NCBI RefSeq assembly: GCF_014651595.1
Contig: NZ_BMXE01000009.1
Coordinates: 1-64,000 of the forward strand
Length of the DNA: 64,000 nucleotides
Direction of reading: 5' to 3'
Origin: Pseudovibrio japonicus
GTDB taxonomy: Bacteria > Pseudomonadota > Alphaproteobacteria > Rhizobiales > Stappiaceae
Shown: positions 7,386 through 33,189 of the stretch, in pieces
Layout of the letters: every line of letters begins with the position of its first letter
How positions within the stretch are numbered: position 1 is the first letter of the stretch
The notes under the pieces: model-generated
What the model saw: the letters and a program-made list of their open reading frames with translations, nothing else
Told to the model about the DNA's origin: nothing
Database searches by the model: none
Program-made: the position numbers and the translations under genes

Positions 7386-7402
7386 GAAGGAAAGAATGTC
7401 AG

Positions 7403-11829: not shown

Positions 11830-11839
11830 GAACTTACCC

Positions 11840-17292: not shown

Positions 17293-17689
17293 AATTCACC
17301 GAGCATTTACTATCGACATCCTCCGATACTATTTGCAACGGCAACGAACTACCGCTTTCCGCCAATGAGGCTTGCTTGAGTATATCGACCTGAAGTTGAA
17401 ACATCCCCCTTCAGAGGACTGCCCTGTGTCAGGGCGAATGGCAGCTCTGGTCATGCTGCCACATGCCGCATCTGCGAAGCTCTGAGAATAACTTTTCGCT
17501 GATGAACGTCAGCAAAGGGCTCAAACCCCAACCTCACCATCTAAATGGCTATCCGGCGACAAACCTCAGTATGACACTTTATTACTTTGAAACTAGCGAT
17601 TGAGTGCGGATTTGCTCATCTAAGTATGGAACACTATTTCTACCCACCGCTTTGGAAACCGAAGGTTGCCGCTAATATTGCACACTCTA
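17293..17689. other. Relic junction region
   Basis: No coding signal. It contains the right copy of the 20-bp inverted repeat (17567-17586), and the binding-protein fragment starts soon after. Confidence 0.4.
17567..17586 (-). repeat. Inverted repeat, right copy
   Basis: Reverse complement of 8524-8543 with one mismatch. The two copies face each other across about 9 kb holding the autotransporter, tetR and saccharopine dehydrogenase-like genes. Confidence 0.55.
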
Positions 17690-18238: not shown

Positions 18239-18240
18239 GC

Positions 18241-19323
18241 ATGAGCAAAGGAACCGGCGTCTTTGCGGCCCCCAAAGTGGTCCGTTCTCATCATTTGCTA
18301 CAGATCAGCTGCGCGGGCTTGGCTGCGCTGGTTCTTTCTGTTTTCCTTGCTGTCTCTGTGGGCGCGGTTTCCATTTCCATGGAGACGGTCTGGGGTGTTC
18401 TTGCAAACAAGCTGGTGCCGGGTCTGGTTGAACCGAGCTGGTCCGTGGGGCGCGAGAACATTTTGTGGCAGATCCGCCTGCCGCGCGCCCTGCTGGCGAT
18501 CATGGTGGGGGCAGGGCTGTCCATAGTGGGGGCCTGTCTTCAATCGGTCACCCGCAACCCCTTGGCAGATCCTCACCTGATCGGCATTTCAGCCGGTGGT
18601 GCGTTTGGGGCAGTTTTGGCGCTGCTGCATACGGGATTGTTTCTGGGCACGCTGACGGTGCCGTTACTGGCGTTCCTAGGCGCGCTTGGCGCGACCTTCC
18701 TTGTGATCGGTGTAGCGAGGTTTACGAGCGCGACCAGTGCGGACCGGTTAGTGCTGACTGGTGTGGCTGTGAGTTTTGTGCTTATGGCAGGCGCAAATAT
18801 TCTCATCTTTCTGGCAGACCCACGGGCGACACACAGTGTGGTCTATTGGATGCTCGGCGGGTTAGGTCTGGCACAGTGGGGGCATCTTATGTACCCGCTG
18901 GTCGTGCTGGTGCTGTGCGGGGGCTGGCTGTGGCTGAGGGCAGGGTACTTCAACGCCATGACGATTGGCGATGAGACGGCGACCACACTTGGCATATCCG
19001 TCTCCAGATTCCGGCTGGAAACCTTCGTGATTGGCGCGCTGATTACGGGTGTGATGGTCGCGTTTTCGGGGATGATCGGTTTTGTGGGGCTTATGGTGCC
19101 TCATATCGTGCGCTTGTTTGTGGGCGGCGACTATCAGCGCCTGATCCCGATCTCAGCATTATTTGGCGCAATCTTCCTCCTCCTCGCAGACGTGGCCGCA
19201 CGTACATTGATGAAGCCCGAGGACATGCCAATCGGCATCATCACCGGCCTCCTTGGCGGCATCTTTTTCATCTGGCTTCTGCGAGAGAAAAGGTGGCGGG
19301 CAGCAACTTGTCAGAGCGGGTGA
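18241..19323 (+). CDS. FecCD-family iron-siderophore ABC permease
   Basis: The protein has 360 residues and about ten hydrophobic segments. Signature blocks are IRLPRALLAIMVGAGLSIVG, RNPLADPHLIGISAGGAFGA and the cytoplasmic coupling region FVGLMVPHIVRLFVGGDYQR, all typical of FecCD/BtuC permeases that form a homo- or heterodimer with an ATPase. It starts two bases after the truncated binding-protein gene. No ATP-binding subunit follows, so the importer is probably non-functional unless served by an ATPase encoded elsewhere. Confidence 0.9.
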   Translation: MSKGTGVFAAPKVVRSHHLLQISCAGLAALVLSVFLAVSVGAVSISMETVWGVLANKLVPGLVEPSWSVGRENILWQIRLPRALLAIMVGAGLSIVGACLQSVTRNPLADPHLIGISAGGAFGAVLALLHTGLFLGTLTVPLLAFLGALGATFLVIGVARFTSATSADRLVLTGVAVSFVLMAGANILIFLADPRATHSVVYWMLGGLGLAQWGHLMYPLVVLVLCGGWLWLRAGYFNAMTIGDETATTLGISVSRFRLETFVIGALITGVMVAFSGMIGFVGLMVPHIVRLFVGGDYQRLIPISALFGAIFLLLADVAARTLMKPEDMPIGIITGLLGGIFFIWLLREKRWRAATCQSG

Positions 19324-19520
19324 ATACTCTGCGGCCCCGGAGACCTTAGGAAAGGTGAGTACGACCAAATTCATGTGCTGTTGGTTGCTCAGCATTCATC
19401 CTGAAACTTTACATCTAGTCTTTCTTAAGTATCAGTTTCGATTCAATATCAATAAGACTTTATTGTTTGTAAGTATTATAAGGGTAGTGTGATCAAGACA
19501 AGCGGTTGGGTGGATTAGTC
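19324..19520. other. Intergenic region before the copper promoter
   Basis: No coding signal. The expected FepC-type ATPase gene is absent. Confidence 0.4.
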
Positions 19521-19551
19521 TTGACCTTCTAGTTGCTGGAAGGATTACAAT
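19521..19551 (+). promoter_or_regulatory. CueR-type (MerR family) copper promoter
   Basis: -35 TTGACC (19521-19526) and -10 TACAAT (19546-19551) are separated by 19 bp, the overlong spacer typical of MerR-family promoters. Inside it is the dyad CCTTC-N9-GAAGG (19525-19543), with CTAGTTGCTGGAAGG closely resembling the CueR operator of E. coli copA. Transcription runs into cusBA (ATG at 19690). No cueR gene lies in the window, so the activator must act from elsewhere. Confidence 0.85.
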
Positions 19552-19689
19552 ACTTGGCTATGAGTTGCCTTGTGCCGGAAGAATAAGAAAAAGTAGTGCA
19601 CTGGCAGAACCTTGAGCAGCACGAGCATTCTTGAATACTGCTTCTCCGTTTCAGGTTGCACCAGTGCCTGGTAGATCAGGACAAGACCG

Positions 19690-21198
19690 ATGCGTAGCAA
19701 GTACGCGGTTGTAGCTGGGTTTGTGGTTGTTTCGAGTATCTCGGTTGGGCTTGGGCTCTTTCTTGGAAGGTCGATGGATTGGACATCTAGAGGGCCTGAC
19801 AGCAACGAGCAGGAGATCCTGTACTGGGTCGCGCCGATGGATCCCAATTTCAGACGCGATGAGCCCGGCAAGTCTCCCATGGGAATGGATCTCATCCCGG
19901 TTTATGCGGAGGAGGACGCCAAGCCAAAGGCGAGTACGGTGGCGCTTTCTCCAAGCGTCATCAACAATATTGGCGTGCGCACGGCTGTTGCCAGTGTTGA
20001 ACCGATCTCTCAGAAAATCGAAAGCGTTGGCTTTGTGGGCTACGATGAACATCGCTCCAGTCATGTTCACCTGCGCACGGAAGGCTGGATTCAAAAGCTC
20101 AATATTCGAGCGATCGGTGATCCGGTTAAGAAGGGCGATTTGCTTTTTACCGTATACGCGCCGGAAGTGATTGTTGCCAATGCGGACCTGATCAGAGCTG
20201 TACGCAGGAATGACAAAGCAGCGGAACAGAGTATCCGCATTCAGCTTCAGAACTACGGTATTGATAGTGCTCAGATCGACGAGATGGCACAAGCCAGCAA
20301 GCCTGGCGATGTCTTCAAAGTATTTGCCCCACAATCCGGCGTCGTGACCACACTGGAAGCTGCAGATGGCATGTATCTGCAGCCGGACTCAATGGCGCTT
20401 AGACTAGCTGATATGTCTTCTGTCTGGTTAATGGTTGATGTGTTTGAACAGGATATCGCACGCCTTAGCCCAAACAGCCAAGTACTTGCCAGCTTTGAAC
20501 ATTTGCCTGGCATGGTGCTGGAAGGGCGGATTGATTACATCTATCCGGAACTGGATGTGGTGACACGCACGCTGCCGGTGCGCCTGTATTTTGATAACTC
20601 TGAAGGCCTCTTGCGTCCCAATATGTTTGGCCGTGTAACCATCATCCCTGCTGAAACGCGCAGCGCTGTGACCATCCCGACCAGTGCGTTGATCCGGACA
20701 GGCATGTCTGAGCGGGTGATTTTGAAAGCAGGTGATGGCACCTTCGTGCCTCGTATTGTGACGCCTGGATTGACCGGCAGTTTCGGTGAAGGCAGTCGAA
20801 CGGAGATCTTGCAGGGCCTTCAGGCCGGCGAGGAAGTTGTGACCTCTGCCCAGTTCCTGATCGACAGTGAGAGCTCACTTTCTGCTGGAATGGGACGGAT
20901 GTCCCCTTCGCAAGGTGTTCCTATTTGGTCAAATGGGACGGTAACCAAAGTTGATCCTGAGACCAACTCCATCACCATTCGGCATACGGCAATAGATGAG
21001 CTTCATTGGCCAGAGATGGAGACCACATTCGCTGTTCGCGGCAATCTGACAGCTTATGAGCTGCGCCCGGATGAACACTTTGAGTTTGCGATTATGCGAG
21101 GATCTGACAAACGTTTCAGCCTTGTTGATCTGCGGCAAATGGGAAGTAAACATCACAAATCAGGACATCTGGCACCAGCGGGGGCCGCTGAGAGATGA
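19690..21198 (+). CDS. cusB: Cu(I)/Ag(I) efflux adaptor CusB with C-terminal CusF-like domain
   Basis: The protein has 502 residues. A membrane-anchor/signal segment (residues 5-25) is followed by a heavy-metal-binding motif, YWVAPMDPNFRRDEPGKSPM with GMDLIPVY, typical of CusB/SilB. The middle has the periplasmic adaptor parts: barrel-sandwich hybrid, alpha-hairpin and beta-barrel (VWLMVDVFEQDIARL, LPVRLYFDN). The last 75 residues or so (GTVTKVDPETNSITIRH ... LHWPEMETTFAV) look like a fused CusF copper chaperone, including the WPxM signature. The adaptor links the inner-membrane pump to an outer-membrane channel. No CusC/TolC gene is adjacent. The stop overlaps cusA (ATGA). Confidence 0.9.
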   Translation: MRSKYAVVAGFVVVSSISVGLGLFLGRSMDWTSRGPDSNEQEILYWVAPMDPNFRRDEPGKSPMGMDLIPVYAEEDAKPKASTVALSPSVINNIGVRTAVASVEPISQKIESVGFVGYDEHRSSHVHLRTEGWIQKLNIRAIGDPVKKGDLLFTVYAPEVIVANADLIRAVRRNDKAAEQSIRIQLQNYGIDSAQIDEMAQASKPGDVFKVFAPQSGVVTTLEAADGMYLQPDSMALRLADMSSVWLMVDVFEQDIARLSPNSQVLASFEHLPGMVLEGRIDYIYPELDVVTRTLPVRLYFDNSEGLLRPNMFGRVTIIPAETRSAVTIPTSALIRTGMSERVILKAGDGTFVPRIVTPGLTGSFGEGSRTEILQGLQAGEEVVTSAQFLIDSESSLSAGMGRMSPSQGVPIWSNGTVTKVDPETNSITIRHTAIDELHWPEMETTFAVRGNLTAYELRPDEHFEFAIMRGSDKRFSLVDLRQMGSKHHKSGHLAPAGAAER

Positions 21199-24100
21199 TC
21201 GCCTCAATCATTCGCGCCTCCATTAAGAACCGCGTGATCGTTCTGCTAGCTGCGTTGATGCTGGCACTCGGCGGCATCTGGGCGTTGAAGGAAACCCCTG
21301 TCGACGCAATTCCTGATCTTTCCGATGTTCAGGTGATCATCAAGACGTCTTACGACGGTCAGGCACCACAGGTCATAGAAGACCAGGTTACCTACCCGAT
21401 CGCCACAGCCATGCTGTCTGTGCCAAATGTGACCGATGTGCGCGGATTCTCGTTCTATGGCGACTCCTACGTCTATGTGGTTTTCAAGGACAATACGGAC
21501 CTTTACTGGGCAAGAAGCCGCGTGCTGGAGTATCTCGCGCAAGCGGGCGCACGTTTGCCTGACGGGGTGACACCAGAGCTTGGGCCGGATGCAACCGGCG
21601 TTGGCTGGATCTATCAGTATTCGTTGATTGACCGGACCGGCACCTATGACATGGCACAGTTGAGGTCCTTGCAGGATTGGTGGCTGAAGTTTGAGCTTCA
21701 AACCGTCAGCGGTGTATCTGAGGTGGCGACCATTGGTGGCATGGTCAAGCAGTATCAAGTTGTTGCTGACCCCAACAAACTACGTGCTTACGGCGTGGCA
21801 CTGCCTGATCTGATGAGCATCATCGAAAATGCAAACCGCGAAACCAGTGGCAGTGTTATCGAGATGGCTGAAGCCGAGTACATGGTCCGCGCCACGGGCT
21901 ATATCCAGTCCATCGACGACCTAAAGCACATTCCGATCAAAGTGAACGAACGCGGCGCTGCGCTCACACTGGAAGATGTCGCTGAGATCCGGCTTGGCCC
22001 GCAAATGCGTCGAGGGGTCGCTGATCTGAACGGTGAAGGCGATGCGGTTGGTGCAGTTGTGATTATGCGCTGGGGTGAAAACCCGCTGCGCACAATTGAA
22101 GGCGTCAAAGCCAAACTGAATGAGCTGAAGTCAAACCTGCCTGACGGTGTGGAGATCATAACCACTTATGATCGCTCTGGTGTCATCGAAAGGTCCATCG
22201 CAAATCTGATCACGAAGCTTACTGAGGAGTTTATCATGGTGGTTCTGGTGTGCGCGATCTTCCTGCTGCACCTCAGATCCTCATTGGTGATCCTAATCTC
22301 GTTGCCGCTCGGCATTTTAACAGCGCTTCTGGTCATGCGTCTGCAAGGGGTGAATGCAAATATCATGTCTCTTGGCGGGATCGCAATTGCAATCGGCGCT
22401 ATGGTGGATGCGACCATCGTGATGATTGAGGCGATGCATCGCAGACTTGAAGCGGAACCAGACCCAGGTAAGAACCGCTGGAAAGTGGTTGCTGAGTCTT
22501 GCTCAGAGGTCGGGCCAGCACTGTTCTACTCTCTCGCGATTATCACCATCAGCTTTCTACCCGTATTTGTGTTGGAGGCGCAGGAAGGGCGTTTGTTCAA
22601 ACCGCTCGCCTTCACCAAGACCTATGCAATGGCAGCGGCGACCATCTTGAGCATTACCCTGGTCCCCGTGCTCATGGGATATTTTGTGCGGGGACGGATT
22701 CATCCAGAGGCCAGGAACCTGGTCAACCGTTTTTGCATCACACTGTATCGCCCGGCGCTTTCGCTGGTTCTCGCTTGGCCAAAGACGACGATCGTCCTTG
22801 CTCTGGTTCTTGTGGCTTCCATCCTTGTGCCGGCGCATCGGGTCGGGACTGAGTTCATGCCGGAGTTGAAGGAAGGCGACTTCCTCTACATGCCATCACT
22901 TTATACCGGTGTCTCGATCGGGAAGGCACGGGAGGTACTTCAGCAAACTGACCGCATGATCATGCAGGTGCCGGAGGTTCAAACTGTGCACGGCAAGCTG
23001 GGACGTGCGGACACGGCAACGGACCCTGCGCCTTTGACCATGTTTGAAACCACCATCCAGCTGAAACCGCAGGACCAGTGGCGCGATGGCATGACGCTTG
23101 AGAAGATACGGGAGGAACTGGACAAGTCCGTACAGGTGCCTGGCCTGACCAATGTCTGGATCCAGCCGATCAAGAACCGTATCGACATGCTCGCGACTGG
23201 TATGAAAACCCCTGTGGGTGTGAAGGTCTCCGGGCCTGATCTGCAAGTTATTCAGGATATCTCGGTTGAGATCGAAGGTCTTGTCAAAGGCGTTGAAGGC
23301 ACTTTGTCAGTCTACGCAGAGCGACCCGAAGGCGCGCGCTTTATCGAGATTGACATCAACCGAAACGCCGCCACTCGCTATATGATGAACATCAAGGATG
23401 TTCAGGACGTGGTGCAAACTGCTATCGGCGGCATGAACATTTCTGAGAGCGTGGAAGGTCTGGAGCGTTACCCTATTAACCTGCGCTACCCGCAGGATTG
23501 GCGTAGCACGCCGGAACAGCTGGAGAAGCTGCCTGTAGTTACTCCCTCTGGTGCTCACATTCCGCTCGGCGCTGTGTCTGACGTGAAAATCGTCGACGGT
23601 CCCGGCATGATCCGCTCCGAGAATGCACGGCCAACAGGCTTCGTATTCATTGACATTGAAGACCGGGATCTAGGTGGCTATGTGAGCGAGGCACAGCAAT
23701 TAGTCGCCTCCAAAGTCAAGATTCCTGCTGGCTACTCGATCACTTGGTCAGGGCAGTACGAGTATATCGCGAGGGTTCAGGAGCGCTTGCTGCTTGTTGC
23801 CCCTGTTACCCTGCTGGTCATTACACTGATGCTGTTCCTTGCCTTCAACCGGATAGGTGAAGTGGCGATCATCCTGACATCCCTACCAATAGCCCTGACC
23901 GGCGGTATCTGGTTTGTCTACGTTTTGGGTTTCGACCTGTCTGTTGCGGTACTGGTTGGCTTTATTGCGCTTGCAGGTGTGGCTGTCGAAACGGCTATTG
24001 TAATGCTGCTTTATCTCAACCTCTCCTGGGACAAGCGTATCGAGACCGCTCGGTTATCGCATCAAGCTTTGACATCAAAAGATGTTCTGGACGCAGTTGT

Positions 24101-24377
24101 CGAAGGAGCCCTTCTGCGCCTGCGGCCAAAGATAATGACGGTTGCAGCTATCTTTGCCGGGTTGATCCCCATCATGCTTGGCAGTGCGACAGGTTCGGAG
24201 ATCATGAAGCGCATCGCGGCCCCCATGGTGGGAGGTATGATCACCGCCACGCTGCTCACACTCTTCGTCATTCCCGCAATCTACGTACTTTGGAAGAAGG
24301 CCCGTTTGCGCGCATTGAACAAGAATATCGAGGAGACGCTTGTCTCTGACGAAGCGGCGAAAACAACAGGCAAGTGA
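21195..24377 (+). CDS. cusA: Cu(I)/Ag(I) efflux RND pump CusA
   Basis: The protein has 1,060 residues, normal for heavy-metal RND pumps. The N-terminal block ALKETPVDAIPDLSDVQVII and the TM4 sequence IAIAIGAMVDATIVMIEAMH are signatures of the monovalent-cation HME group. The large periplasmic loops contain methionines compatible with copper relay (for example MLATGMKTPVG). It is expected to move Cu(I) or Ag(I) from periplasm and cytoplasm through CusB, powered by protons. It is translationally coupled to cusB and read from the CueR-type promoter. It lies directly beside the Tn7-like module and may be its cargo, but the transposon's left end is not located. Confidence 0.92.
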   Translation: MIASIIRASIKNRVIVLLAALMLALGGIWALKETPVDAIPDLSDVQVIIKTSYDGQAPQVIEDQVTYPIATAMLSVPNVTDVRGFSFYGDSYVYVVFKDNTDLYWARSRVLEYLAQAGARLPDGVTPELGPDATGVGWIYQYSLIDRTGTYDMAQLRSLQDWWLKFELQTVSGVSEVATIGGMVKQYQVVADPNKLRAYGVALPDLMSIIENANRETSGSVIEMAEAEYMVRATGYIQSIDDLKHIPIKVNERGAALTLEDVAEIRLGPQMRRGVADLNGEGDAVGAVVIMRWGENPLRTIEGVKAKLNELKSNLPDGVEIITTYDRSGVIERSIANLITKLTEEFIMVVLVCAIFLLHLRSSLVILISLPLGILTALLVMRLQGVNANIMSLGGIAIAIGAMVDATIVMIEAMHRRLEAEPDPGKNRWKVVAESCSEVGPALFYSLAIITISFLPVFVLEAQEGRLFKPLAFTKTYAMAAATILSITLVPVLMGYFVRGRIHPEARNLVNRFCITLYRPALSLVLAWPKTTIVLALVLVASILVPAHRVGTEFMPELKEGDFLYMPSLYTGVSIGKAREVLQQTDRMIMQVPEVQTVHGKLGRADTATDPAPLTMFETTIQLKPQDQWRDGMTLEKIREELDKSVQVPGLTNVWIQPIKNRIDMLATGMKTPVGVKVSGPDLQVIQDISVEIEGLVKGVEGTLSVYAERPEGARFIEIDINRNAATRYMMNIKDVQDVVQTAIGGMNISESVEGLERYPINLRYPQDWRSTPEQLEKLPVVTPSGAHIPLGAVSDVKIVDGPGMIRSENARPTGFVFIDIEDRDLGGYVSEAQQLVASKVKIPAGYSITWSGQYEYIARVQERLLLVAPVTLLVITLMLFLAFNRIGEVAIILTSLPIALTGGIWFVYVLGFDLSVAVLVGFIALAGVAVETAIVMLLYLNLSWDKRIETARLSHQALTSKDVLDAVVEGALLRLRPKIMTVAAIFAGLIPIMLGSATGSEIMKRIAAPMVGGMITATLLTLFVIPAIYVLWKKARLRALNKNIEETLVSDEAAKTTGK

Positions 24378-24561
24378 ACGTGGACTGGCTCAGGAAAAGT
24401 GGCAGGAACTCTGATGAAGCGAAGTGAGGAGTTCATGAGGCGACTAATTTATACAGAAGAGTAGAAATGGGAAAAGCGAGATCTAAGCAGCTGATTGCTC
24501 AGCTAAATTCAGTACTTGCCGTCGATCTTCTTAGTACGTGTCGTCTTTCTCTCTAATCTTT

Positions 24562-25638
24562 TCATTTCTTCAATATTGACGATGCTGGGATCAAAGTAGG
24601 ATCACACTCGATCATAGGAGAAAATGTCGTCCTATGATCCATACTATTGTGATGAATTCTTTTGCTTGTCAGATTTACTGTACAGGACCTTCCATAGAGT
24701 ATAGCAGTCATGGGGGAGAATTTATTAGGCAGTCCTAGTGTTTTGCTTGGACAAGCGTGACATGGGTGATTTTGAGGCATGATCCAATCATACACGATTG
24801 CTTTCTTGTCAAAGTAACCGAGATAGCTGCGTGCAAGCTCTAAGTATCCTAGTTCAATAAGTGGTAAGATTCGTACTTTGTTTTCTGAAGGGAACACAAA
24901 TGTTCTATCGACGCTAAGATCTAAGTACCCCTTGAGTGCGATAGTTCTAGGCGGTGAGGTGGTGTGATTATTTGTCGTTTCATCAGTCATATACTCATTT
25001 CGCATTTGATAAATTAACGCTTGAGAGCAGGGACTAAGGCGTGCATGGACCCCGCACAGCGCTTCCGCGACTTCATCGATCTTGTTATAACGTTCATGGA
25101 GGTTAGGTTCGTTTGCGTTCTTGCCACTCGGAGGTGGCATGTTGAATGCGTATTCCTTTCCCGATAATATCGTTTCTAGGGCTTGTAGGGCTTCTTTTCT
25201 GTTGTTGCAAACTGCTTTCGCAATGGGCTGGTCATGTTCTGAACAATGATTGTCGGCATGCCACTTCGCTAGTAACCATCCACAACCAGCTTGTTTGATC
25301 TGCTTCTCAATGCACGCTCTACAGTAGGAAATCATCTGAGAAAGCTGGTATGGTTCGTAAACTTGTTTTCGCCTGTCAATTGGCTCAATCAAATTCTTAA
25401 GCCTAGTTACAAGTTCGTCTGGAAAATAATGTTCTTTATGAATGTTGCTTACAAATCCATTACAGCCAAGCAATGTCAGCATAAGCTTGTCGCCGTAGCT
25501 TGCAAGCTCGCTCACGCTGTGTGGGTGGGCAAATGGATTCTTTGACCAGCATCCATTCTTGCTGATGATATTTGAAAAATCTGAAATTCCTGCTTTTTTT
25601 TGAAGGCGGTATAGAAGTGAATGAACGAGTTCGACCAA
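24562..25638 (-). CDS. Second TniQ-like transposition protein
   Basis: The protein has about 358 residues from a TTG at 25638. Residues 100-145 carry a TniQ-type zinc motif (YCRACIEKQIKQAGCGWLL, then KWHADNHCSEHDQP), the C-x2-C ... WH ... C-x2-H arrangement of TniQ/TnsD. A further C-x2-C (PCHACPSK) occurs near residue 302. The frame stays open upstream to about 25700, reading YLPELLLSPLN, like the LPxxxxP opening of TniQ proteins, so the true start is unclear (no ATG or ribosome site) and the N-terminus may be damaged. It diverges from tnsD. Some Tn7-like elements use two TniQ-family selectors for different targets; that role is inferred. It could correspond to TniE of Tn6022-like elements. 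Confidence 0.65.
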   Translation of the reverse strand: MVELVHSLLYRLQKKAGISDFSNIISKNGCWSKNPFAHPHSVSELASYGDKLMLTLLGCNGFVSNIHKEHYFPDELVTRLKNLIEPIDRRKQVYEPYQLSQMISYCRACIEKQIKQAGCGWLLAKWHADNHCSEHDQPIAKAVCNNRKEALQALETILSGKEYAFNMPPPSGKNANEPNLHERYNKIDEVAEALCGVHARLSPCSQALIYQMRNEYMTDETTNNHTTSPPRTIALKGYLDLSVDRTFVFPSENKVRILPLIELGYLELARSYLGYFDKKAIVYDWIMPQNHPCHACPSKTLGLPNKFSPMTAILYGRSCTVNLTSKRIHHNSMDHRTTFSPMIECDPTLIPASSILKK

Positions 25639-25934
25639 TGTTGCTTTGCGGTGACTAGTTGTTGCGTTTAAGGGTGATAGCAGCAGCTCAGGTAAGTATT
25701 ATTGAAATAGGTAACAGGGTTGCTGATGTGCGCTTATCCTCTGAAGACACCGGGGATGCAACCAACCAGAAGTGTAAGTTTTAGTAAATTCAAAGCAAAA
25801 TCCCATCTTGATTGAGGGTACATGCAAAAGTAAGTTTGTATCATCGATCGTTGGATGCATTGAGGGCAACAAGAATTTAAAGAAAAGCTCGCTATTCTTC
25901 TAGCTGCATTGCAGAAACTACTAGAGTAGACAAG
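25639..25934. other. Divergent promoter region between tniQ-like gene and tnsD
   Basis: AT-rich intergenic DNA between the two divergent target-selection genes. No clear operator or end repeat was seen. Confidence 0.4.
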
Positions 25935-27518
25935 GTGCAACTACCAAAAGTATTGCCTGATGAACTCCTCTTCAGTCGGGTAGTTCGGTGCTTCGAGATT
26001 AGTGGGCTAGTACGATCAGATTTTCTCGAGGAGGTGGCTGGCTCAAAGCGTGCTTCAATTCACCCATTGCTTCCAAACGGGATTGAGCGTTTCAGCCGAT
26101 TTACCTCTGAAAGTTCAAGACAATTGCTGTGGGAGCAAACAATGGCTCCTCTCTTTTTAGCCTGCCTTGCCGATCGGGCCGAGGTAATCCAAGATGCAAT
26201 GTTGGGGGAGAGAGCGGGAACGCCTGGAAGGAGTTGCCAGCTACCTTGCTTTAAGTACCATCCAAAGCTGGTGCTTAAATTCTGTCCTGAATGCACGAAA
26301 GAGGATATCAAAAGATTTGGCGTCTCATATTGGCACCGCGCCCATCAAGTTTTTGGTGTAAATGTGTGCTCAACTCACCATAAGGAACTGCTTGAAACCA
26401 AACTCCATGGTCGTTCACGATTGTTACGTGGATTGCTGCCGCCTACCAATTGCATTAGTGCTACTACAACGCTTGAGAACGCCCAGTTTGCAGAGTTTGC
26501 TTGCAGCAAGCTTATTAACTTCAGTTCAGGAAGAAAAAGCAACACAGCTGCATATCGCCGAATGCTTAAGCGTTTTGGATACCTGACAACATCGGGCCGG
26601 GTTCGCAGGCAATTGCTAAGCGCTGAGCTTTACGATCTGCTATCGACTCTGACTGCAGTTGATATCCAATTTAAGCCGACCAGTAGAAAAGACTTTAGGT
26701 ACGTATCGGGATTACTTGACAAAAACAATGTCAAACACCCAGCGATACACTTGTTGTTTAGCTACTGGATTTCAAGAACGAGAAAAGCTCCCCTCCCACT
26801 CAAGAGACCAAAAATAAGGGAAAGCCGGCCTTGTTTAGGGAAAGAGAAAGACGCTGAATGTTTGGCATTGCTTGCGGAAGGCTTTTCGTTAACAGAGATT
26901 ATGCTGAGAACTGGGAGGAGCCGTTGTTATCTCAAGAGGCTGGCTGCTCTTAATTGCATCGAAACAAAAAAACAGCCGACGAAGTTGACTTCTGACCGAA
27001 GCGTAATCCTTCTTCAGTTGGCCAGAAAAGGTTTTCATCGTCAAATAATAGCAGAGCGTTTGGGTATTTCCGTAGGAACCGTTGAGATGGCGATCTCGCA
27101 GGCGGAAGGGTTGGTTGGCCACCGCAAGCGATGCAAATATCAGAGTTATCGACGTCGTTATAAAGCGCAAATTTTACGCTATCGTCAGAGGAATCCTGGA
27201 GCGCTACGTAAACATATCAAGAAAGCATGTAGTGCAGCATTCTTCTGGCTTTACTTGAATGAGCGTTACTGGTTGGAGGAGGCTTTGCCTACGCCAACAA
27301 AAGCGCAGGCCAAACCCCGTGTTGACTGGGAGTTGCGGGACAAAGAGTTAGCCATGAAAGTTGGTGATGTTTTAAGCGGATGCGAGGGAAGGATTTCAAG
27401 GTCACGTCTTGATCGGTTGCTGGGCGGTCATGGGTGGCTGACCAAGTATCGGGCGCGTTTGCCACGGACCATGAACGTTTTCCGGGCTCATATTGGGTCG
27501 TGTAAAGGGCAATCGTGA
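25935..27518 (+). CDS. tnsD: Tn7-like target-selection protein TnsD (TniQ family)
   Basis: The protein has 527 residues from a GTG start. The N-terminal TniQ domain has the zinc motif FCPECTKEDIKRFGVSYWHR followed by AHQVFGVNVCSTHH (about residues 116-150). Two helix-turn-helix-like blocks follow (LLAEGFSLTEIMLRTGRSRC near 310 and LARKGFHRQIIAERLGISVG near 355). The C-terminus RVDWELRDKELAMKVGDVL ... RLPRTMNVFRAHI is the typical TnsD ending. TnsD binds a conserved chromosomal site and recruits TnsC; here that site is inferred to be the 3' end of yhiN. It converges on tnsC with only 2 bp between the two stop codons. Confidence 0.88.
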   Translation: MQLPKVLPDELLFSRVVRCFEISGLVRSDFLEEVAGSKRASIHPLLPNGIERFSRFTSESSRQLLWEQTMAPLFLACLADRAEVIQDAMLGERAGTPGRSCQLPCFKYHPKLVLKFCPECTKEDIKRFGVSYWHRAHQVFGVNVCSTHHKELLETKLHGRSRLLRGLLPPTNCISATTTLENAQFAEFACSKLINFSSGRKSNTAAYRRMLKRFGYLTTSGRVRRQLLSAELYDLLSTLTAVDIQFKPTSRKDFRYVSGLLDKNNVKHPAIHLLFSYWISRTRKAPLPLKRPKIRESRPCLGKEKDAECLALLAEGFSLTEIMLRTGRSRCYLKRLAALNCIETKKQPTKLTSDRSVILLQLARKGFHRQIIAERLGISVGTVEMAISQAEGLVGHRKRCKYQSYRRRYKAQILRYRQRNPGALRKHIKKACSAAFFWLYLNERYWLEEALPTPTKAQAKPRVDWELRDKELAMKVGDVLSGCEGRISRSRLDRLLGGHGWLTKYRARLPRTMNVFRAHIGSCKGQS

Positions 27519-27520
27519 GC

Positions 27521-28939
27521 CTACGTCCCGAGCTGCAGTAATGGGTCATCGCAAAGGATGTCTTTGTTTTTTAACTCATTAATAGGGTCTGCCTGTTCAG
27601 CTGCCTGTTGGATTGCATTAGGATCTTCAACCAGGCGCGTAAGGTCAATTTCGTCTTTAAGAAACTGCAACTGCTCCGCAAACTCAGGATGCTGAGCGCG
27701 CGTTAAGTCTCCCGGAATTTTATGAAAAGCTGGAGGGGGGGAGATGGTGCCTTGAGAAACAGCTGCTTCTTTGCGTGGTCGTTTTAAGATCGCAGTGTGC
27801 GAGTGGCGCATTTCGTTTAGCGTTCTGGCTGTTGCTTGGGAGGCCACCGCGGTAGCCTGATCCAATACTTGCTCGTTCAAGTGTTCCGCTCCAGAACCAA
27901 TTACTATGCGTTGCGCCTCTCTAAAAATACGAACCGCCATATCGACATTCCCGGCAGATAGATGATGTAGGTGATCACTTATCGCTTTTGAACTCGGTGT
28001 TACCTGGGCTGTCCATTGTAACTTCCAAAGTTCTTCAAAAAAGATCTCCCATAGCTCATCATTCTGCAGCAGTTCCATTCGAAGATAAAACTCAGATTCA
28101 GCCCGGCGAGCTGTTTTAAAATCCTTGCTCAACAGCTCATCGAAAGGAGGGTTACCGCAAAACAACAATGGGATCCCCAAGTTGTTCACCAGATTATGTA
28201 GGAACTTAAGAAGGCTGTCGCTCCCTTTCGTTTTTCGCGCTGTCAGGTGCTGCATTTCATCGATCACCAACAGGCCAAGGAAACTGGATTTAACCCTAGC
28301 CTCAATTTGTAACAGCAGATCGGGTATTGTATGCCCCAGTTTGGTTTCGCTGAAGCCTTGCAATTCATCCAGTTGGCGCAGGATATTATTACATAGTTGC
28401 CTCACACTTGAGTCATGTGGGCAATCGACCTTCGCCCAAACAACCTGTCTTAAGTGGAGCGGCTCTGTGTAATAGTCCGAATGATCGATAATCTGCGGAA
28501 ACGGTGCCAGAACCTGTTCCAGCATCGTTGTTTTGCCCGCGCCACTTTCACCAATAACGGTAATTACACAGCCTTTGGGCCTAAAGTAGCCGGTGATAGG
28601 TTCAATCTTGGTAGGTGTATCGAGGGGGTAATGAAGATAGTTCTGTGTGGTCGGCGAGAGAGGGTTTTTTGCAGAGTAGCCTTTGCGAATGGTCCTATCA
28701 ACGGCACGGTAAAGGTGAAGGTACTCAGGGAGAGGTTGAATGAAATGATCTAAGCGGGAAAGGTAGTCAAGTCTGTCAAAGGGATCCAACATGCGCTCTG
28801 CGGTGGTTGGAGTTGGGTAATTTTCAAGGATTTCAATTAATTGCTCGTCAGAGCAGCGGCGTGGCAAGGCTTCAATAAGCGGGTTACCTTGATAGTCTGG
28901 GAAAGCTGTTTCTATATACTGAGCCTTAACAGGAGCCAT
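27521..28939 (-). CDS. tnsC: Tn7-like transposition AAA+ ATPase TnsC
   Basis: The protein has 472 residues. Walker A GESGAGKTTM (about residue 133), Walker B LLVIDEMQHL (about residue 225) and sensor segment LLFCGNPPF mark the AAA+ core of the TnsC/TniB group. TnsC forms ATP-dependent filaments linking the TniQ-bound target to TnsAB. The C-terminal 100 residues or so are charged, as in TnsC parts that touch TnsA. The start overlaps the 3' end of tnsB by 14 bp, so the genes are co-translated. Confidence 0.9.
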   Translation of the reverse strand: MAPVKAQYIETAFPDYQGNPLIEALPRRCSDEQLIEILENYPTPTTAERMLDPFDRLDYLSRLDHFIQPLPEYLHLYRAVDRTIRKGYSAKNPLSPTTQNYLHYPLDTPTKIEPITGYFRPKGCVITVIGESGAGKTTMLEQVLAPFPQIIDHSDYYTEPLHLRQVVWAKVDCPHDSSVRQLCNNILRQLDELQGFSETKLGHTIPDLLLQIEARVKSSFLGLLVIDEMQHLTARKTKGSDSLLKFLHNLVNNLGIPLLFCGNPPFDELLSKDFKTARRAESEFYLRMELLQNDELWEIFFEELWKLQWTAQVTPSSKAISDHLHHLSAGNVDMAVRIFREAQRIVIGSGAEHLNEQVLDQATAVASQATARTLNEMRHSHTAILKRPRKEAAVSQGTISPPPAFHKIPGDLTRAQHPEFAEQLQFLKDEIDLTRLVEDPNAIQQAAEQADPINELKNKDILCDDPLLQLGT

Positions 28940-31091
28940 TGCGGTTTTTCTTTCTTTTAAGCAATGAAATTGTACTTTTCAGGTTGTGTGGGTCGGAAGC
29001 ATGCATGCTTTCGTTCGGAGCTCGGGTCGCTTCTGGCTGATTTGGCTTTCTACGTTCAAACTCTAGTGCTTGTTGCCGGGTCTCCCGCATCCCTTTCGTT
29101 TTGTCTGCCTTGCGTGTCCCAACTGACGCTTCTTTTGTTGCAGCTTGAGCCTTGGTTTGTGTTTGTTTGCGCAGCCTTAGGCTCTCAATTTTTTTCGATG
29201 AGACCGTCCCAAAGCGTTTGTTGGCTTTTTGATAGTCCAAAAAGAATGAGATGTCCGCACTGTGCATATTTGCAAAGATTGCTGATTTGGACGACAGGGT
29301 GCATAAAAGAAATGGCCCATTGGGCTGCAACCTGACATACAAAAGAGAAGCATTTTCAGGATCTTGGCGGCCTTCAAGTTTAATCCGTCCTTGCGTACGG
29401 GCTTTTGCTTTCAAAGCATCAAAATCGGGATGGTCGTAGGTATAGTATATACTGTCATGAAGCCGAATTCCTCGCCCGGTCATGGATACTTCTACTGGGT
29501 GCAAGAGCTCAGCAGTCAGCCTGTCAGGATCGGTGACCATAAAAGCCGTGCGGTTGGTCTGTCGGTGGATGTTCCAGTAGTTAAGTGGGGTCGGTGCTAA
29601 ACCATTCTGGATGAGCAACGGGCTTTGGGAAGCAAGTGCCTCGCAAACACTTTGATTTTGCTGCAGAACTTCATCTATTAGGAGTGCGGTAAACTCGTGA
29701 ATGGTTAGCTGGGACTGAAGGCGAGCGTCTGGTTCCCCCCGCGTACGTGCACGGCCTTTGGTGGATCCGGGGAGCTCGTGCAGCAACTCGGAGTTAAACT
29801 TCCCAAAGCAGCGCTCAACAATCGCTTTCATGTCTGGTCGATAAGGCGGAGTAATGCTTAACTGGGTCACAGGTACCAGAAGTTGTTCTGGTACTAGTCC
29901 CGCTAGCTCACCCCGATCGCACAAAAGGCTCTCAGGCAGATGATGGCAGGGCCAAGCTTCCTCTGTAATTGTGATACCATACCGCAAACAATAAGGAGGC
30001 TTCGGCGAAAATGCGTTCAACAATGCTTGTTTTGCGGCTCGCCAGGAGGCGTGTTCTAAGGAAACGTGGATGCCAACAATCATTCGGCTTGCGACATCGA
30101 CAACTGAATAAATAGTGGGACGACCCAAAACCTTACTACGGTCAAAGTGGGCGACGAGATGTACATCAGCGACCGTCGCGTCGATCTCGAAACAGCTACC
30201 CGGCACCTTCGCGTGATCAGTTGCTGCCCCGTGGAGCCCACGTTTATTGCGAAGGTAGTCGCCAGTATTTGTTCGTCCACGAATGAGTTTATCTTCGTCG
30301 ATTAGGACTTTGACCCAATAACAAAATTGCCGGTAATTGGGAACATTAGGAAAGCGCTCTTCTTGTTCTGCCGCCAAGACTTCCTTGGAGTAGTAGTGGG
30401 CAATCGTTTTCTCCCATGCGCTCTTGTAGGAGCGATGCTCACCAATAAGTAGGAACTTTTTTGCCCCTTTCAAAATTAGTTTCTTATCGTGAGGTGTGAT
30501 GTTGATCCCCGGATTCATATTGATCAGACCGGTGCGGGAGGTAACAGGTTTGCCGCGCTTTTTCTCTCCTGATTGTCTTTGTTTGCCTGGTGCTCCTTGT
30601 TTCGCAAATCTAGGAAGCAGGGCGTTAGCGGTCTGCCCATAGCGCCAATAAGTGTTTAAGAGGCGATAGAGGGTTCGAACGTCGATCCCGATCTCCTTGG
30701 CTCTGTCACTAACGTGTGTCGAGCGTAGCGACAAAGCGAAGTCTTGCAAGAAACTTCTGTTCTTTATCAGGGGCTGAATGTGGAGCAGACGTTCGTCGCG
30801 CATTTGCCGACGGTGTTGCGGAAGGCTTTCTTCATCGACAAGTAGATACGGAGGTGTTTCAAAGGCTTCAGCCTGAATTGCGTTACTATCGACAGCGGCT
30901 GTAAAGTCGCTGAGCAAGGCACCGATCGGGCGGTGAAGTTTGGTGCTGCTCTCGTGCTCCAATTTGAAAAGAACGACTAAATCGGTTTCTGGTTGGATTG
31001 CCAAGACCCGATAGTGTCCGGCTTCGATACCGTCCAGATCGTAAATCTTCCAAGTACTGTTGGTCTCAATCTGCAATCTGCTAGGTCCCAA
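28926..31091 (-). CDS. tnsB: Tn7-like DDE transposase TnsB
   Basis: The protein has 721 residues from a TTG start overlapping the tnsA stop by about 11 bp. The Mu/TnsB-type catalytic domain shows CFEIDATVADVHLV (first Asp), LLCDRGEL (second Asp) and RPDMKAIVERCFG (Glu). N-terminal helix-turn-helix segments (VSDRAKEIGIDVRTLYRLLN) would bind the end repeats. The C-terminal tail is lysine- and arginine-rich, as expected for the part contacting TnsC. TnsB cuts and joins the 3' ends of the element. Confidence 0.92.
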   Translation of the reverse strand: MGPSRLQIETNSTWKIYDLDGIEAGHYRVLAIQPETDLVVLFKLEHESSTKLHRPIGALLSDFTAAVDSNAIQAEAFETPPYLLVDEESLPQHRRQMRDERLLHIQPLIKNRSFLQDFALSLRSTHVSDRAKEIGIDVRTLYRLLNTYWRYGQTANALLPRFAKQGAPGKQRQSGEKKRGKPVTSRTGLINMNPGINITPHDKKLILKGAKKFLLIGEHRSYKSAWEKTIAHYYSKEVLAAEQEERFPNVPNYRQFCYWVKVLIDEDKLIRGRTNTGDYLRNKRGLHGAATDHAKVPGSCFEIDATVADVHLVAHFDRSKVLGRPTIYSVVDVASRMIVGIHVSLEHASWRAAKQALLNAFSPKPPYCLRYGITITEEAWPCHHLPESLLCDRGELAGLVPEQLLVPVTQLSITPPYRPDMKAIVERCFGKFNSELLHELPGSTKGRARTRGEPDARLQSQLTIHEFTALLIDEVLQQNQSVCEALASQSPLLIQNGLAPTPLNYWNIHRQTNRTAFMVTDPDRLTAELLHPVEVSMTGRGIRLHDSIYYTYDHPDFDALKAKARTQGRIKLEGRQDPENASLLYVRLQPNGPFLLCTLSSKSAIFANMHSADISFFLDYQKANKRFGTVSSKKIESLRLRKQTQTKAQAATKEASVGTRKADKTKGMRETRQQALEFERRKPNQPEATRAPNESMHASDPHNLKSTISLLKRKKNRNGSC

Positions 31092-31886
31092 CGCCCAGTG
31101 TTTGTGTTGCTAGTATTTCGAACGCATCGGCTTCCTGCCAATCTTGTCTACTATCCAGATGGACCCTCTTTGAACCAATTAGCGCACGCATTACGTTGAT
31201 TGCATCGTCCAGTTGAACATCAAGGTGGTCGACAAACCTTGAGCACAGGTTAGTACGCAGCTGCGGGCCTAATTCCACGAGCTGTACAGCTCTATCTAGA
31301 AATTCATTGTCATAGTGTCCGTGCCGCAGCGGCCACGTTGCCCATTTGATGTTTGCGGCTTGCATTTTAAGTCGTTTGGTCAGCACAAAAATGCGAAACC
31401 GAACGCCGAGTAACTCCCAGAAGACGCGCTCGATATCGATTTTTTCTGCTGTTCGTTGATTAGTAAGTTCTTCGGCCGGTTTGACGCAAACCGCTTCATA
31501 GCTGAGTTGGCCATCCCTTTGGCAAGTTAGTAAAAAATCAGTTGTCATAACGTTCGGGTGCTTAGTCGAGACAACCAGTGGATGTTTGAGATCAAGACAA
31601 CTTGCAATCCGAAGTGTCTGGTCTAGGGGAAGAAGCGGAAATTGCTCACGAATATCAATAACGCGCTCATTGTGCTCGCAGAGATAGAAAACGCACTTTC
31701 ATTGTTTGAAAGCAAATGATGTTCGCGTTGTGTTTTCATTCCCCAAATCTTGGAACATGTTCCATGAGAGGGAATGTCCTGCACTCGTATCCAGGGCTTG
31801 TAAGAAGCTCCTTCTCCGAGACCATATTTGTTGCGAAGTGAACGCTGAAAATCTTTGATTTCATTCAGCTTTCGTCCTCTTGCCAT
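31081..31886 (-). pseudogene. tnsA: tnsA endonuclease gene with a 1-nt frameshift
   Basis: Two minus frames join into one TnsA of about 268 residues, close to Tn7 TnsA (273). The first (from 31886) reads RKLNEIKDFQRSLRNKYGLG and ends correctly at HHLLSNNESAF. Adding one T in the T4 run at 31692-31689 gives FYLCEHNERVIDIREQFPLL and runs on into TTDFLLTCQRDG and SYEAVCVKPAEEL. The restriction-like catalytic residues are Glu (NNESAF), Asp (TTDF) and Lys (CVKP); the Glu is on one side of the break, Asp and Lys on the other. TnsA cuts the 5' ends, so its loss would change cut-and-paste to copy-type joining. No canonical slippery heptamer is present. Confidence 0.85.
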
Positions 31887-31927
31887 GTTGTTTCTCTTTG
31901 TTCGGCTAAAGGGTGGAAAGATTTTAG

Positions 31928-31998
31928 TGTGCAGGAATTATTATTCCGTTAGGCGCTTGTGTGCAAAAATTATTAGCTATGTGCAGAAATTATTATAC
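31928..31998. repeat. Three TnsB-like end repeats (transposon right end)
   Basis: TGTGCAGGAATTATTATTCC (31928-31947), TGTGCAAAAATTATTAGCTA (31960-31979) and TGTGCAGAAATTATTATACC (31980-31999) share TGTGCARRAATTATTA. The last two abut. Tandem sites of about 20 bp just inside the end are typical of Tn7-type right ends. No copies in the opposite orientation were found in the window. Confidence 0.85.
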
Positions 31999-32000
31999 CT

Positions 32001-32017
32001 ACACAAACTCTCATACA
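32001..32017. other. Probable transposon-chromosome junction at the yhiN 3' end
   Basis: The element should end in ACA on this strand. ACACA at 32001-32005 places the end 7-8 bp from the outermost repeat, with AACTC (32006-32010) as possible 5-bp target duplication just outside the yhiN stop (32011-32013). An alternative end is ACA at 32015-32017, which would make the last yhiN codons transposon-derived. Confidence 0.55.
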
Positions 32018-33189
32018 AACTGCCCCGCCGCATGACCGGACGCCCACGCCCATTGGAAGTTGAATCCTCCCAGATGCCCGGTAACATCGACGACTTCGCC
32101 GATGAAGAAGAGGCCGGGAACCTTGCTTGCTTCCATGGTTTTGGAGGAAATGGCCTTCGTGTTCACGCCGCCTAAGGTGACTTCAGCGGTACGGTAGCCT
32201 TCTGTTCCAACCGGCTTGATGGTCCAGTCATTTATCGCAAGCGCCGCCTTGCGCAGCACCTTGTCGGAGGTATCCGCTAACCGTCCGCCCAACTTGTGCT
32301 CCTCGGCAATATGAGCGGCCAGCTTTTTGGGCAGTAATCCTGCAAGGGTGGTCTTGATGTCCTGCTTGGGCTGGTTCTGCTTGGCGGACTTCAGGGCGTC
32401 AAACGCATCCGTGTCGGGCAATAGGTTGACGCGAATATCTTTGCCTTCTTCCCAATAGGAAGAGATCTGCAGGATGGATGGCCCGGAAAGGCCGCGGTGG
32501 GTGAAAAGCAAGCCTTCGCGGAAGCTGGTCTTCTTGAAAGACACCACAGCATCTACTGAGACACCCGCCAGATGTTTGGTCCGCTCGCGCATGGCATCAT
32601 CAAAGACAAACGGCACCAGTGCGGCGCGAGGTGACACGATCGGTAGATCAAACCGCTTGGCAACCTCATAGCCAAACCCTGACGCCCCCATCTTCGGAAT
32701 GGACGGTCCGCCACACGCCACGACGACGGACTGAGCACGTATGGTATCGCGCGATGTGCCGATGGTGAAGCGGTCATCCGGCTTGGTCAGTGAAGTAATG
32801 CTGGTTTGCAGCTCAATGCGCACGCCAGCTTGCTGGCAAAGCCCAAGCAGCATGTCGATGATCTGCTGTGCGCTGTCATCGCAAAACAGCTGGCCCAGTG
32901 TCTTTTCGTGCCAGCTGATGCCGTGCTTGTCGACCAGTGCGATAAAGTCATGCTGGGTAAAGCGCTTCAGGGCAGAAACTGCAAAACGTGGGTTCTGGGA
33001 AAGGTAATTTGCAGGGGAGGCGTGCAGATTGGTGAAGTTGCAGCGCCCACCACCGGAGATGCGGATTTTGTCTGCCGCCCGTTTGGCATGGTCAATCACC
33101 AGCACAGAGCGTCCGCGTTTTCCAGCCTCAATGGCACACATTAGGCCGGCAGCACCTGCACCTATTATAAGAACATCAATGTTTTGCAT
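32011..33189 (-). CDS. yhiN: YhiN/HI0933-family flavoprotein
   Basis: The protein has 392 residues. The N-terminal FAD motif is VLIIGAGAAGLMCAIEAGKR; RISGGGRCNFTN is the signature of the HI0933/YhiN family, and the C-terminal block FIGEVVDVTGHLGGFNFQWA is the second FAD-contacting part. The exact reaction is unknown. The gene appears complete, ending HAAGQFV; its stop codon touches the Tn7-like right end. Its conserved 3' region (GGFNFQWAWASG) is probably what TnsD recognises. Confidence 0.9.
   Translation of the reverse strand: MQNIDVLIIGAGAAGLMCAIEAGKRGRSVLVIDHAKRAADKIRISGGGRCNFTNLHASPANYLSQNPRFAVSALKRFTQHDFIALVDKHGISWHEKTLGQLFCDDSAQQIIDMLLGLCQQAGVRIELQTSITSLTKPDDRFTIGTSRDTIRAQSVVVACGGPSIPKMGASGFGYEVAKRFDLPIVSPRAALVPFVFDDAMRERTKHLAGVSVDAVVSFKKTSFREGLLFTHRGLSGPSILQISSYWEEGKDIRVNLLPDTDAFDALKSAKQNQPKQDIKTTLAGLLPKKLAAHIAEEHKLGGRLADTSDKVLRKAALAINDWTIKPVGTEGYRTAEVTLGGVNTKAISSKTMEASKVPGLFFIGEVVDVTGHLGGFNFQWAWASGHAAGQFV

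What the first reader, a model, noticed from the sequence alone, without database searches (positions are those of the whole stretch)
24562..33189. Tn7-like transposon sitting at the 3' end of a yhiN gene
A tnsABC set, a TnsD with the classical C-terminus and three TnsB-like repeats end a few bases from the stop codon of an intact yhiN (HI0933 family). As in Tn7, tnsA is nearest to the end that abuts the target gene. The conserved 3' end of yhiN is therefore the likely attachment site. I recall that a Tn7-like family (Tn6230) uses yhiN, so the targeting may be known, but the alphaproteobacterial host and gene layout may be new.
Basis: partly seen in the sequence, partly recalled or inferred. 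Interest (0 to 1): 0.8.

Follow-up and report, generated by a model that had tools for sequence, protein, structure and literature searches.

The report
yhiN-targeting Tn7-like transposon, diverged branch
This is a large Tn7-like transposon parked against the end of a conserved gene (yhiN), a distant relative of the Tn6230 family of gut and marine bacteria, and comparing it with its relatives points to a second target-selector gene, mostly annotated as hypothetical, that the family appears to share.

Summary
A Tn7-like module (tnsB, tnsC, tnsD, and a tnsA broken by a frameshift) ends with three TnsB-type repeats at window 32005, five bases past the yhiN stop codon. The left end is not in the window; it lies on contig C16 (position 1887), linked through a repetitive RTX gene, so the element is probably at least 42 kb. 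TnsB, TnsC and TnsD are closest (45, 52, 40%) to Tn6230-type elements of Gammaproteobacteria. In those, yhiN lies directly upstream of tnsA in 6 of 6 chromosomal copies holding that sequence. The three end repeats have the same spacing (0, 20, 52) in all nine relatives measured, and in 11 of 13 occupied sites the element end is 51-57 bp from one yhiN core (AACTTCCARTGG). So the targeting is known in outline; the diverged end motif was seen only in this genus, and no close relative in another alphaproteobacterium was found. Extras: (1) A- or B-type ends lie at the yhiN end in 7 of 12 genus genomes examined, and here the element is in tandem with a unit that has Tn6230-type ends; (2) ORF 24562-25638 is a strongly diverged second TniQ, with homologs in 11 of 12 family elements, a candidate second selector. 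The 5-bp duplication stays ambiguous.

The parts
24562..25638 (-). Diverged second TniQ-like protein (358 aa, TTG start), candidate second target selector
   Evidence: No Pfam hit at 0.01 and no NCBIfam hit itself; homologs in related elements, whose best Pfam match is TniQ in the nine; family profile matches TnsD
25935..27518 (+). tnsD: attachment-site selector, TniQ plus TnsD domains; convergent with tnsC
   Evidence: Pfam PF15978 2e-28, PF06527 9e-13; about 40% to TnsD of Tn6230-type elements
27521..28939 (-). tnsC AAA+ regulator
   Evidence: Pfam AAA_22 5e-22, TniB 4e-12; 47-53% to TnsC of the family
28926..31091 (-). tnsB DDE transposase
   Evidence: Tn7 TnsB 7pik 5e-71; 45% to TnsB of the pNDM-KN/E. 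coli element; tree
31081..31886 (-). tnsA endonuclease gene, broken by a frameshift near 31690-31700 (halves 31623-31886 and 31081-31548)
   Evidence: the two halves lie in one frame in all 11 other loci compared
31928..32005 (-). Right end: three TnsB-type repeats, terminal TGTGTAGGTATAATAATTTCTGCACA
   Evidence: same 0/20/52 spacing in nine relatives
32006..32014 (+). Junction: AACTC (32006-32010) or CTCAT (32010-32014) as possible 5-bp duplication
   Evidence: Compared with C16:1880-1886; ambiguous
32050..32061 (-). Conserved core inside yhiN (AACTTCCAATGG), proposed part of the attachment site
   Evidence: 51-57 bp from the element end in 11 of 13 occupied sites compared; binding by TnsD is inferred
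32011..33189 (-). yhiN target gene, open
1..24561 (.). Inferred rest of the element (cargo) in the window: RTX C-terminal part 1-2736, oxidoreductases 4299-7385, autotransporter frames 12756-16962, periplasmic-binding/FecCD pair 17666-19323, CusB/CzcA-type efflux pair 19690-24377
   Evidence: that it all belongs to one element rests on the left end lying on C16:1887

Best explanation
The window holds the right part of a Tn7-like transposon of the Tn6230 (yhiN-targeting) family, a deep branch in a probable alphaproteobacterial host. TnsD recognises conserved 3' coding DNA of yhiN (core AACTTCCARTGG), recruits TnsC, and TnsB with TnsA inserts the element about 51-57 bp further on, at the very end of the gene, in one orientation with the tnsA end next to yhiN. 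Shown: gene content, right end, a matching left end on another contig, fixed site and orientation across relatives. Inferred: that TnsD reads that core, that the two ends belong to one element, and that the element was mobile; its tnsA is now broken, so today it would move only replicatively, with help, or not at all. The yhiN end has been hit repeatedly; here the element lies in tandem with a unit bounded by Tn6230-type ends. The ORF at 24562 is a second, diverged TniQ that most likely serves a second route of target choice (inferred).
For: Pfam and PDB matches of TnsA/B/C/D. Nine TnsD relatives in the 84,980-species collection, eight at 38-42%; among family members yhiN is directly upstream of tnsA in 6 of 6 chromosomal elements holding that sequence, 3 more are cut by the contig start. 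Same repeat spacing 0/20/52 in nine relatives. Core-to-end distance 51-57 bp in 11 of 13 sites. E. coli copy: identical inverted ends, ATTGC on both sides, insertion in the last codons of yhiN. Left end on C16, C16 sharing RTX repeat DNA with the window start; C8 is colinear with DNA downstream of yhiN in five congeners. Ends at yhiN in 7 of 12 genus genomes examined, 0 of 17 parsed loci of other genera; background 9 A and 23 B matches in 1.76 Mb of both-strand sequence. TnsB tree: window inside the yhiN clade, 100/100. A Tn7-like pco/sil element moved from a plasmid to between yhiN and yhiM (PMC8417528, passages; not compared by sequence here).
Against: No clean 5-bp duplication: AACTC needs 2 extra bases at the left terminus, CTCAT 4 extra at the right. 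tnsA is frameshifted. The two ends are on different contigs and the join runs through tandem repeats that match in more than one register. TnsD was not found at E 1e-20 in the other 396 genomes of an order sample (three congeners among those listed); in a phylum sample 15 of the other 397 match at E 1e-6, all at 30% or less. The 26% relative in Neomegalonema shows no yhiN in its fetched 20.7 kb. Window is a long branch in the tree, and its place as first branch has only 85/85.
Confidence: 0.9

Rival explanations
1. A dead, domesticated island: the tns genes are a decaying relic and the cargo is kept as a fixed genomic island; what is seen is history, not a working element. (Compatible with the origin given above.)
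For: tnsA frameshift; G014 keeps only the right end and a tnsA fragment, and other congeners only ends, at the same site; TniQ and TnsB were found in 1 of 15 congeners, G013, on another contig; tandem remnants.
Against: tnsB, tnsC, tnsD and the second TniQ are full-length and open, and the right end is identical over 285 bp to the relic in G014.
Confidence: 0.45
2. The second TniQ is not a separate selector but works together with TnsD at yhiN, as a partner in the same target complex.
For: It travels with TnsD in 11 of 12 family elements; in four (L118, L123, L125, L128) it follows tnsD within 1.3 kb.
Against: In E. coli, V. tetraodonis and an Enterobacter plasmid copy it lies far from tnsD, near the left end; one element with the same target (Shewanella L129) shows none in its genome at E 0.001.
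Confidence: 0.35
3. The A-type left end on C16 belongs to a different element than the window's right end, and recombination between tandem copies produced the present mosaic.
For: The duplication does not match cleanly; a third A-type end remnant lies on C8 with Tn6230-type ends between.
Against: C16 end and window start share RTX repeat DNA at 97.7% and the orientation of both ends is as expected for one element.
Confidence: 0.25
4. Chance neighbour: repeats and tns genes beside yhiN by accident.
For: The loose repeat count by itself is not significant.
Against: Same site and spacing in independent genomes.
Confidence: 0.01

Closest known systems
Tn6230 and yhiN-targeting Tn7-like elements of Gammaproteobacteria
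   Same: Target site and orientation, tnsA next to yhiN, right-end repeat spacing 0/20/52, TnsB about 40-45%, TnsC 47-53%, TnsD 38-42%, second TniQ
   Different: Probable alphaproteobacterial host; end repeat AATAATTTCTGCACA instead of AATAAAGTTTGTACA (or AATAAAGTTTGCC-like in V. tetraodonis and one Enterobacter plasmid); tnsD inverted relative to tnsABC; tnsA frameshifted; cargo of RTX/HlyC-type and metal-efflux genes
Tn7 (glmS)
   Same: TnsA, TnsB, TnsC, TnsD; insertion at the 3' end of a conserved gene (recalled for Tn7, also in PMC11406308, passages)
   Different: Target yhiN, not glmS; a second TniQ is present; TnsE was not searched for specifically
Dual TniQ-TnsD loci (Faure et al. 2023, PMC10293859, sections 8 and 11 read)
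   Same: One large TnsD and one smaller TniQ in one element
   Different: The small TniQ here is so diverged that, of the homologs scanned, only one passes the Pfam cut-off; no Cas or TnsF partner identified
V. cidicii VC01 Tn7-like transposon (PMC12671221, passages)
   Same: Next to yhiN; the paper lists tnsABCD and in addition a tniQ/tnsD selector, so a second TniQ in a yhiN-adjacent element may already be in print
   Different: Not compared by sequence here
B-type (Tn6230-type) ends at yhiN in this genus
   Same: Same site, repeat AATAAAGTTTGTA
   Different: No TniQ and no TnsB at E 0.001 in the genomes of G015, G021, G022, G023, G024

Membership tests
Tn6230 / yhiN-targeting Tn7-like family | Insertion at the 3' end of yhiN with fixed spacing and orientation | tested here: met
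   Core-to-end 56 bp in the window, 51-57 bp in 11 of 13 sites; tnsA end nearest yhiN
Tn6230 / yhiN-targeting Tn7-like family | TnsABC and TnsD proteins related to those of the family | tested here: met
   About 40-45/47-53/38-42% identity for TnsB/C/D, both tnsA halves align; TnsB clade 100/100. tnsA itself is frameshifted
Tn6230 / yhiN-targeting Tn7-like family | TGTG...CACA ends with arrays of TnsB sites on both sides | tested here: met
   Right end in window, left end with two repeats on C16:1887; motif differs from the Tn6230-type one at 4 of 15 positions. That both belong to one element is inferred
Tn6230 / yhiN-targeting Tn7-like family | 5-bp target duplication | tested here: inconclusive
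   AACTC or CTCAT, each needing extra bases at one end; the E. coli member shows ATTGC on both sides
Tn6230 / yhiN-targeting Tn7-like family | Transposition directed to yhiN by TnsD | not testable with these tools
   Needs a bench assay
CRISPR-associated transposon | cas effector genes or guide array in the element | tested here: not met
   No Rfam match in window, L018, L019; only the end repeats among direct repeats of 18+ in 24300-32030; no Cas domain among the ORFs scanned with Pfam. Not every ORF was scanned and the assembly gap was not seen
Tn7 sensu stricto | glmS attachment site | tested here: not met
   Element abuts yhiN
Tn7 sensu stricto | TnsE | not tested
   No dedicated TnsE search was made

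The most novel reading that the evidence does not exclude
The diverged TniQ (24562-25638 and its relatives) is the second-pathway selector of the whole yhiN family, sending the element to conjugative plasmids (or another mobile target) without TnsE and without CRISPR; this would fill the blank in how Tn6230-type elements, including those found on IncC plasmids, leave the chromosome.
Probability: 0.3. Interest if true: 0.7.

Novelty: new member of a known kind. Interest (0 to 1): 0.5.

Why it matters
yhiN targeting was known but described as having unknown molecular details (PMC11406308, passages). The comparison here gives a concrete attachment-site core and spacing shared by gammaproteobacterial elements and this diverged one, shows two end types at one hotspot within a genus, and points to a conserved second TniQ, mostly annotated as hypothetical, that makes the second target pathway of this family directly testable.

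Tried and rejected
Rejected: CRISPR-guided element (nothing found in what was scanned). Rejected: left end near 24400-24562 (no repeat found in the window). Phage origin of ORF 24562: no hit in the phage collection. Rejected: a frameshifted tnsA as the family norm; in 11 other loci the two halves lie in one frame. The relic in G014 does not share the window's break but has a frame change of its own further on. Not resolved: left boundary of the whole island on C8 near 237.5 kb, where no A- or B-type end was found with up to 2 mismatches; left partners of the B-type ends in G015, G022 (whose stretch holds 7,500 N) and G023; in G021 and G024 the contig ends within 270 bp of yhiN. Host name: 16S was not found in the assembly. 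The alphaproteobacterial placing rests on yhiN being closest, in the plasmid collection, to Sinorhizobium at 59% and on the efflux genes resembling those on Rhodobacteraceae plasmids; Pseudovibrio is only my recalled guess. Papers: the listings and the passages or sections opened showed no analysis of a second TniQ in Tn6230 and no alphaproteobacterial yhiN element; PMC12671221 does name a tniQ/tnsD besides tnsABCD in a Vibrio cidicii element next to yhiN (passages). Benler et al. (PMC8649781) does not contain the word yhiN in its held main text. Supplements were not readable; Petassi 2020 is not held.
Full report
WHAT IS THERE. The window is the first 64 kb of contig C9 (182,531 bp) of a 4.96-Mb genome in 24 contigs. 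yhiN (HI0933 family, 1e-92) is open at 32011-33189 on the minus strand. Past its stop codon, read in the yhiN direction, come GAGTT and then an outward Tn7-like end, TGTGTAGGTATAATAATTTCTGCACA, with two more repeats of the same kind. Then come tnsA (31886 down to 31081), tnsB and tnsC, all on the minus strand, and tnsD on the plus strand, convergent with tnsC. TnsD carries TniQ and TnsD Pfam domains and TnsC an AAA/TniB domain; TnsB has no Pfam match but matches Tn7 TnsB (7pik) at 5e-71. tnsA is not one open frame: its halves (31623-31886 and 31081-31548) are in different frames and the break lies near 31690-31700. In 11 other loci (10 family elements and the Neomegalonema outgroup) the two halves lie in one frame; the relic in congener G014 does not share the window's break but has a change of its own further on.

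WHERE THE OTHER END IS. No left-end repeat was found in the window. A scan of the own genome found exact repeats only at the window's right end, at C16:1898-1944 and at C8:256545, plus three one-mismatch places on C3 and C4 that I did not follow. C16 (12,213 bp) shows TGTGAATGTATAATAATTTCTGCACA facing inward from position 1887 with a second repeat. Its far end runs into an RTX gene whose repeats match the start of the window (C16:11602-11996 to window 1-395, 97.7%, and in another register C16:11848-12213 to 1-366, 97.8%), and the window begins inside the C-terminal part of such a gene. I read the element as C16:1887-12213, an assembly gap of unknown size in tandem repeats, and C9:1-32005: at least 42.3 kb. 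Cargo seen: a HlyC-type acyltransferase (PF02794, 5e-37), Hint-domain and RTX proteins on C16, and in the window oxidoreductases, an autotransporter, a periplasmic-binding/FecCD pair and a CusB/CzcA efflux pair.

THE LOCUS IN RELATIVES. Contig C8 (167,661-237,344) is colinear, with gaps, with the DNA downstream of yhiN in G013, and parts of C8 match G014, G015, G017 and G022 in the same way. That ties C8 to the yhiN neighbourhood; C16 is placed between C8 and C9 by its ends and its RTX repeats, which is inference. In G013 a segment shared with G015 and G017 ends about 85 bp from yhiN, close to an empty site; in G017 and G015 the same segment is 18 and 86 kb away from yhiN. In the 200 bp after the yhiN stop, 7 of the 12 genus genomes examined (of 16 in the genus) carry a transposon end, and 0 of 17 parsed loci from other genera of the family do (one more could not be parsed); background over the fetched regions is 9 A- and 23 B-type matches in 1.76 Mb of both-strand sequence. 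Two (G000, G014) have the window's A-type repeats. Four (G015, G021, G023, G024) have a B-type repeat, AATAAAGTTTGTA, exactly; G022 has a one-mismatch version. G014 keeps only the right end (identical over 285 bp) and a tnsA fragment. Of 15 congeners only G013 has a TnsB match (31%) and a TniQ, both on contig C42 and not the yhiN contig. On C8 and C16 B-type ends bound a unit of at least 8.3 kb with RTX/Hint genes, lying between a remnant A-type right end and the left end of the element. The site has thus been used several times, and no transposase is found with the other occupants.

COMPARISON WITH KNOWN ELEMENTS. In the plasmid collection the best-listed TnsD and TnsB relatives (about 40 and 45%) are on enterobacterial plasmids, IncC in the two examined, and on Alteromonas plasmids. 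An E. coli chromosomal copy of the pNDM-KN element sits between yhiN and yhiM with order yhiN-tnsA-B-C-D. Its two termini share the inverted TGTGCAGCGACAATAAAGTTTGTACA, flanked by ATTGC on both sides, and the insertion lies inside the last codons of yhiN, the element supplying the stop codon (an empty E. coli site was not compared). A search of one genome per species found 9 TnsD relatives: 8 at 38-42%, one of them in a MAG labelled Dehalococcoidia, and one at 26% from Neomegalonema, an alphaproteobacterium. Among the family (38% and more), yhiN is directly upstream of tnsA in all six chromosomal elements that hold that sequence (E. coli, Vibrio tetraodonis, Alteromonas a30, Alcanivoracaceae with only the yhiN end, Zobellella, Shewanella); three others are cut by the contig start; the three plasmid copies are not at yhiN; Neomegalonema shows no yhiN. 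Right-end repeats lie at 0, 20 and 52 in all nine relatives measured, as in the window (the Alteromonas plasmid has a fourth copy); seven have AATAAAGTTTGTA, two AATAAAGTTTGCC-like repeats, the window AATAATTTCTGCA. From the yhiN core AACTTCCARTGG, the element end is 51-57 bp away in 11 of 13 sites, the window at 56. The outliers, G014 (46 as scored; 52 if the TGTG next to its repeat is taken) and G022 (64), have altered termini, and Alteromonas a30, whose terminus lacks TGTG, was scored with a pattern of its own. A TnsB tree of 13 rows puts the window inside the 11-row yhiN clade at 100/100, as first branch at 85/85 with a long-branch warning. This is the Tn6230 family: a review table lists Tn6230 as targeting yhiN with molecular details unknown (PMC11406308, passages), an E. 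coli survey places Tn6230 between yhiN and yhiM (PMC10121019, passages), a Vibrio cidicii element lies next to yhiN (PMC12671221, passages), and a Tn7-like pco/sil element, which that paper writes as tnsABCDE, was seen to move from a plasmid to that place (PMC8417528, passages; I did not compare its sequence).

THE DUPLICATION. The E. coli member has ATTGC on both sides. Here the bases beyond the right end are AACTCTCAT and those before the left end are ACTCAT, preceded by CACA of the neighbouring B-type end. AACTC fits if the left terminus carries two extra bases, CTCAT if the right terminus carries four. Short matches at free offsets are weak evidence, so I leave this open.

THE SECOND TniQ. 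ORF 24562-25638 has no Pfam (E 0.01) or NCBIfam match. tblastn finds it in 22 plasmid records, all 15 listed at 22% and 2e-6, among them pNDM-KN. Homologs occur in 11 of the 12 distinct family elements examined. The window protein itself finds those of pNDM-KN/E. coli, Alteromonas a30, Vibrio E2, UBA1152 and Vibrio injensis; the Alteromonas plasmid one is matched pairwise (2e-7) and by Pfam TniQ; a profile from these seven then finds those of the Enterobacter plasmid, Vibrio tetraodonis, Alcanivoracaceae and Zobellella, each on the contig or record that holds tnsD. None was found at E 0.001 in the Shewanella genome, nor in the outgroup Neomegalonema. An IncHI plasmid element with a 34% TnsD also has one. 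The best Pfam match is TniQ in all nine homologs (5e-6 to 0.025) and in the Alteromonas plasmid one (1e-5), but the shorter annotated form of the pNDM-KN one had none at E 1, and only Alteromonas a30 passes Pfam's cut-off. The family profile in turn finds the window's TnsD at 3e-6, and profile comparison with TnsD gives 85% probability. Invariant residues include E, S and R near the N terminus and CxxC...CxxH. It lies near the left end in E. coli, Vibrio tetraodonis and the Enterobacter plasmid and within 1.3 kb after tnsD in both Alteromonas elements, UBA1152 and Vibrio injensis. [quoted passage not shown] That it sends the element to plasmids is inference: copies reside on conjugative plasmids, and no TnsE is named in the annotated copies read, though I did not search for it.

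VERDICT. It is a new, deep-branching member of the Tn6230 family; the predicted duplication remains open, and tnsA is broken. The interest lies in the hotspot with two end types and in the conserved second TniQ.

Noticed in passing
window 47824-48990 (-): A second, distant HI0933-like flavoprotein gene (24% to yhiN); many genomes of the family list such a second match, often on the same contig as yhiN. No A- or B-type end was found beside it here.
   Followed up: partly
window 12756-17393: Autotransporter region looks split: two overlapping frames (12756-14684 and 14620-16962), and 40 residues of its C-terminal part recur at 97.5% at 17172-17291.
   Followed up: no
L019:10546-10593 (C8:256545-256592): Remnant A-type right end directly abutting a B-type left end with no base between; how this arose is unexplained.
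   Followed up: partly
L037 / G022 after the yhiN stop: A 10-bp unit TTTGTGTGAG is repeated between yhiN and a degenerate B-type end.
   Followed up: no
L100, L135 (G013:C42:5933-9808): A different Tn7-like element (TnsB 31%, TniQ 5e-22) in a congener, not on the yhiN contig.
   Followed up: no
L078:480-3245 and 6555-8525 (G023): RTX-repeat proteins also lie beside yhiN behind a B-type end in this congener; the stretches of G014, G015, G017, G022 and G027 scanned show no such motif.
   Followed up: partly
window about 3403-3479: 77-bp stretch 82% identical to an annotated IS3-family transposase gene on a Sphingopyxis plasmid.
   Followed up: no
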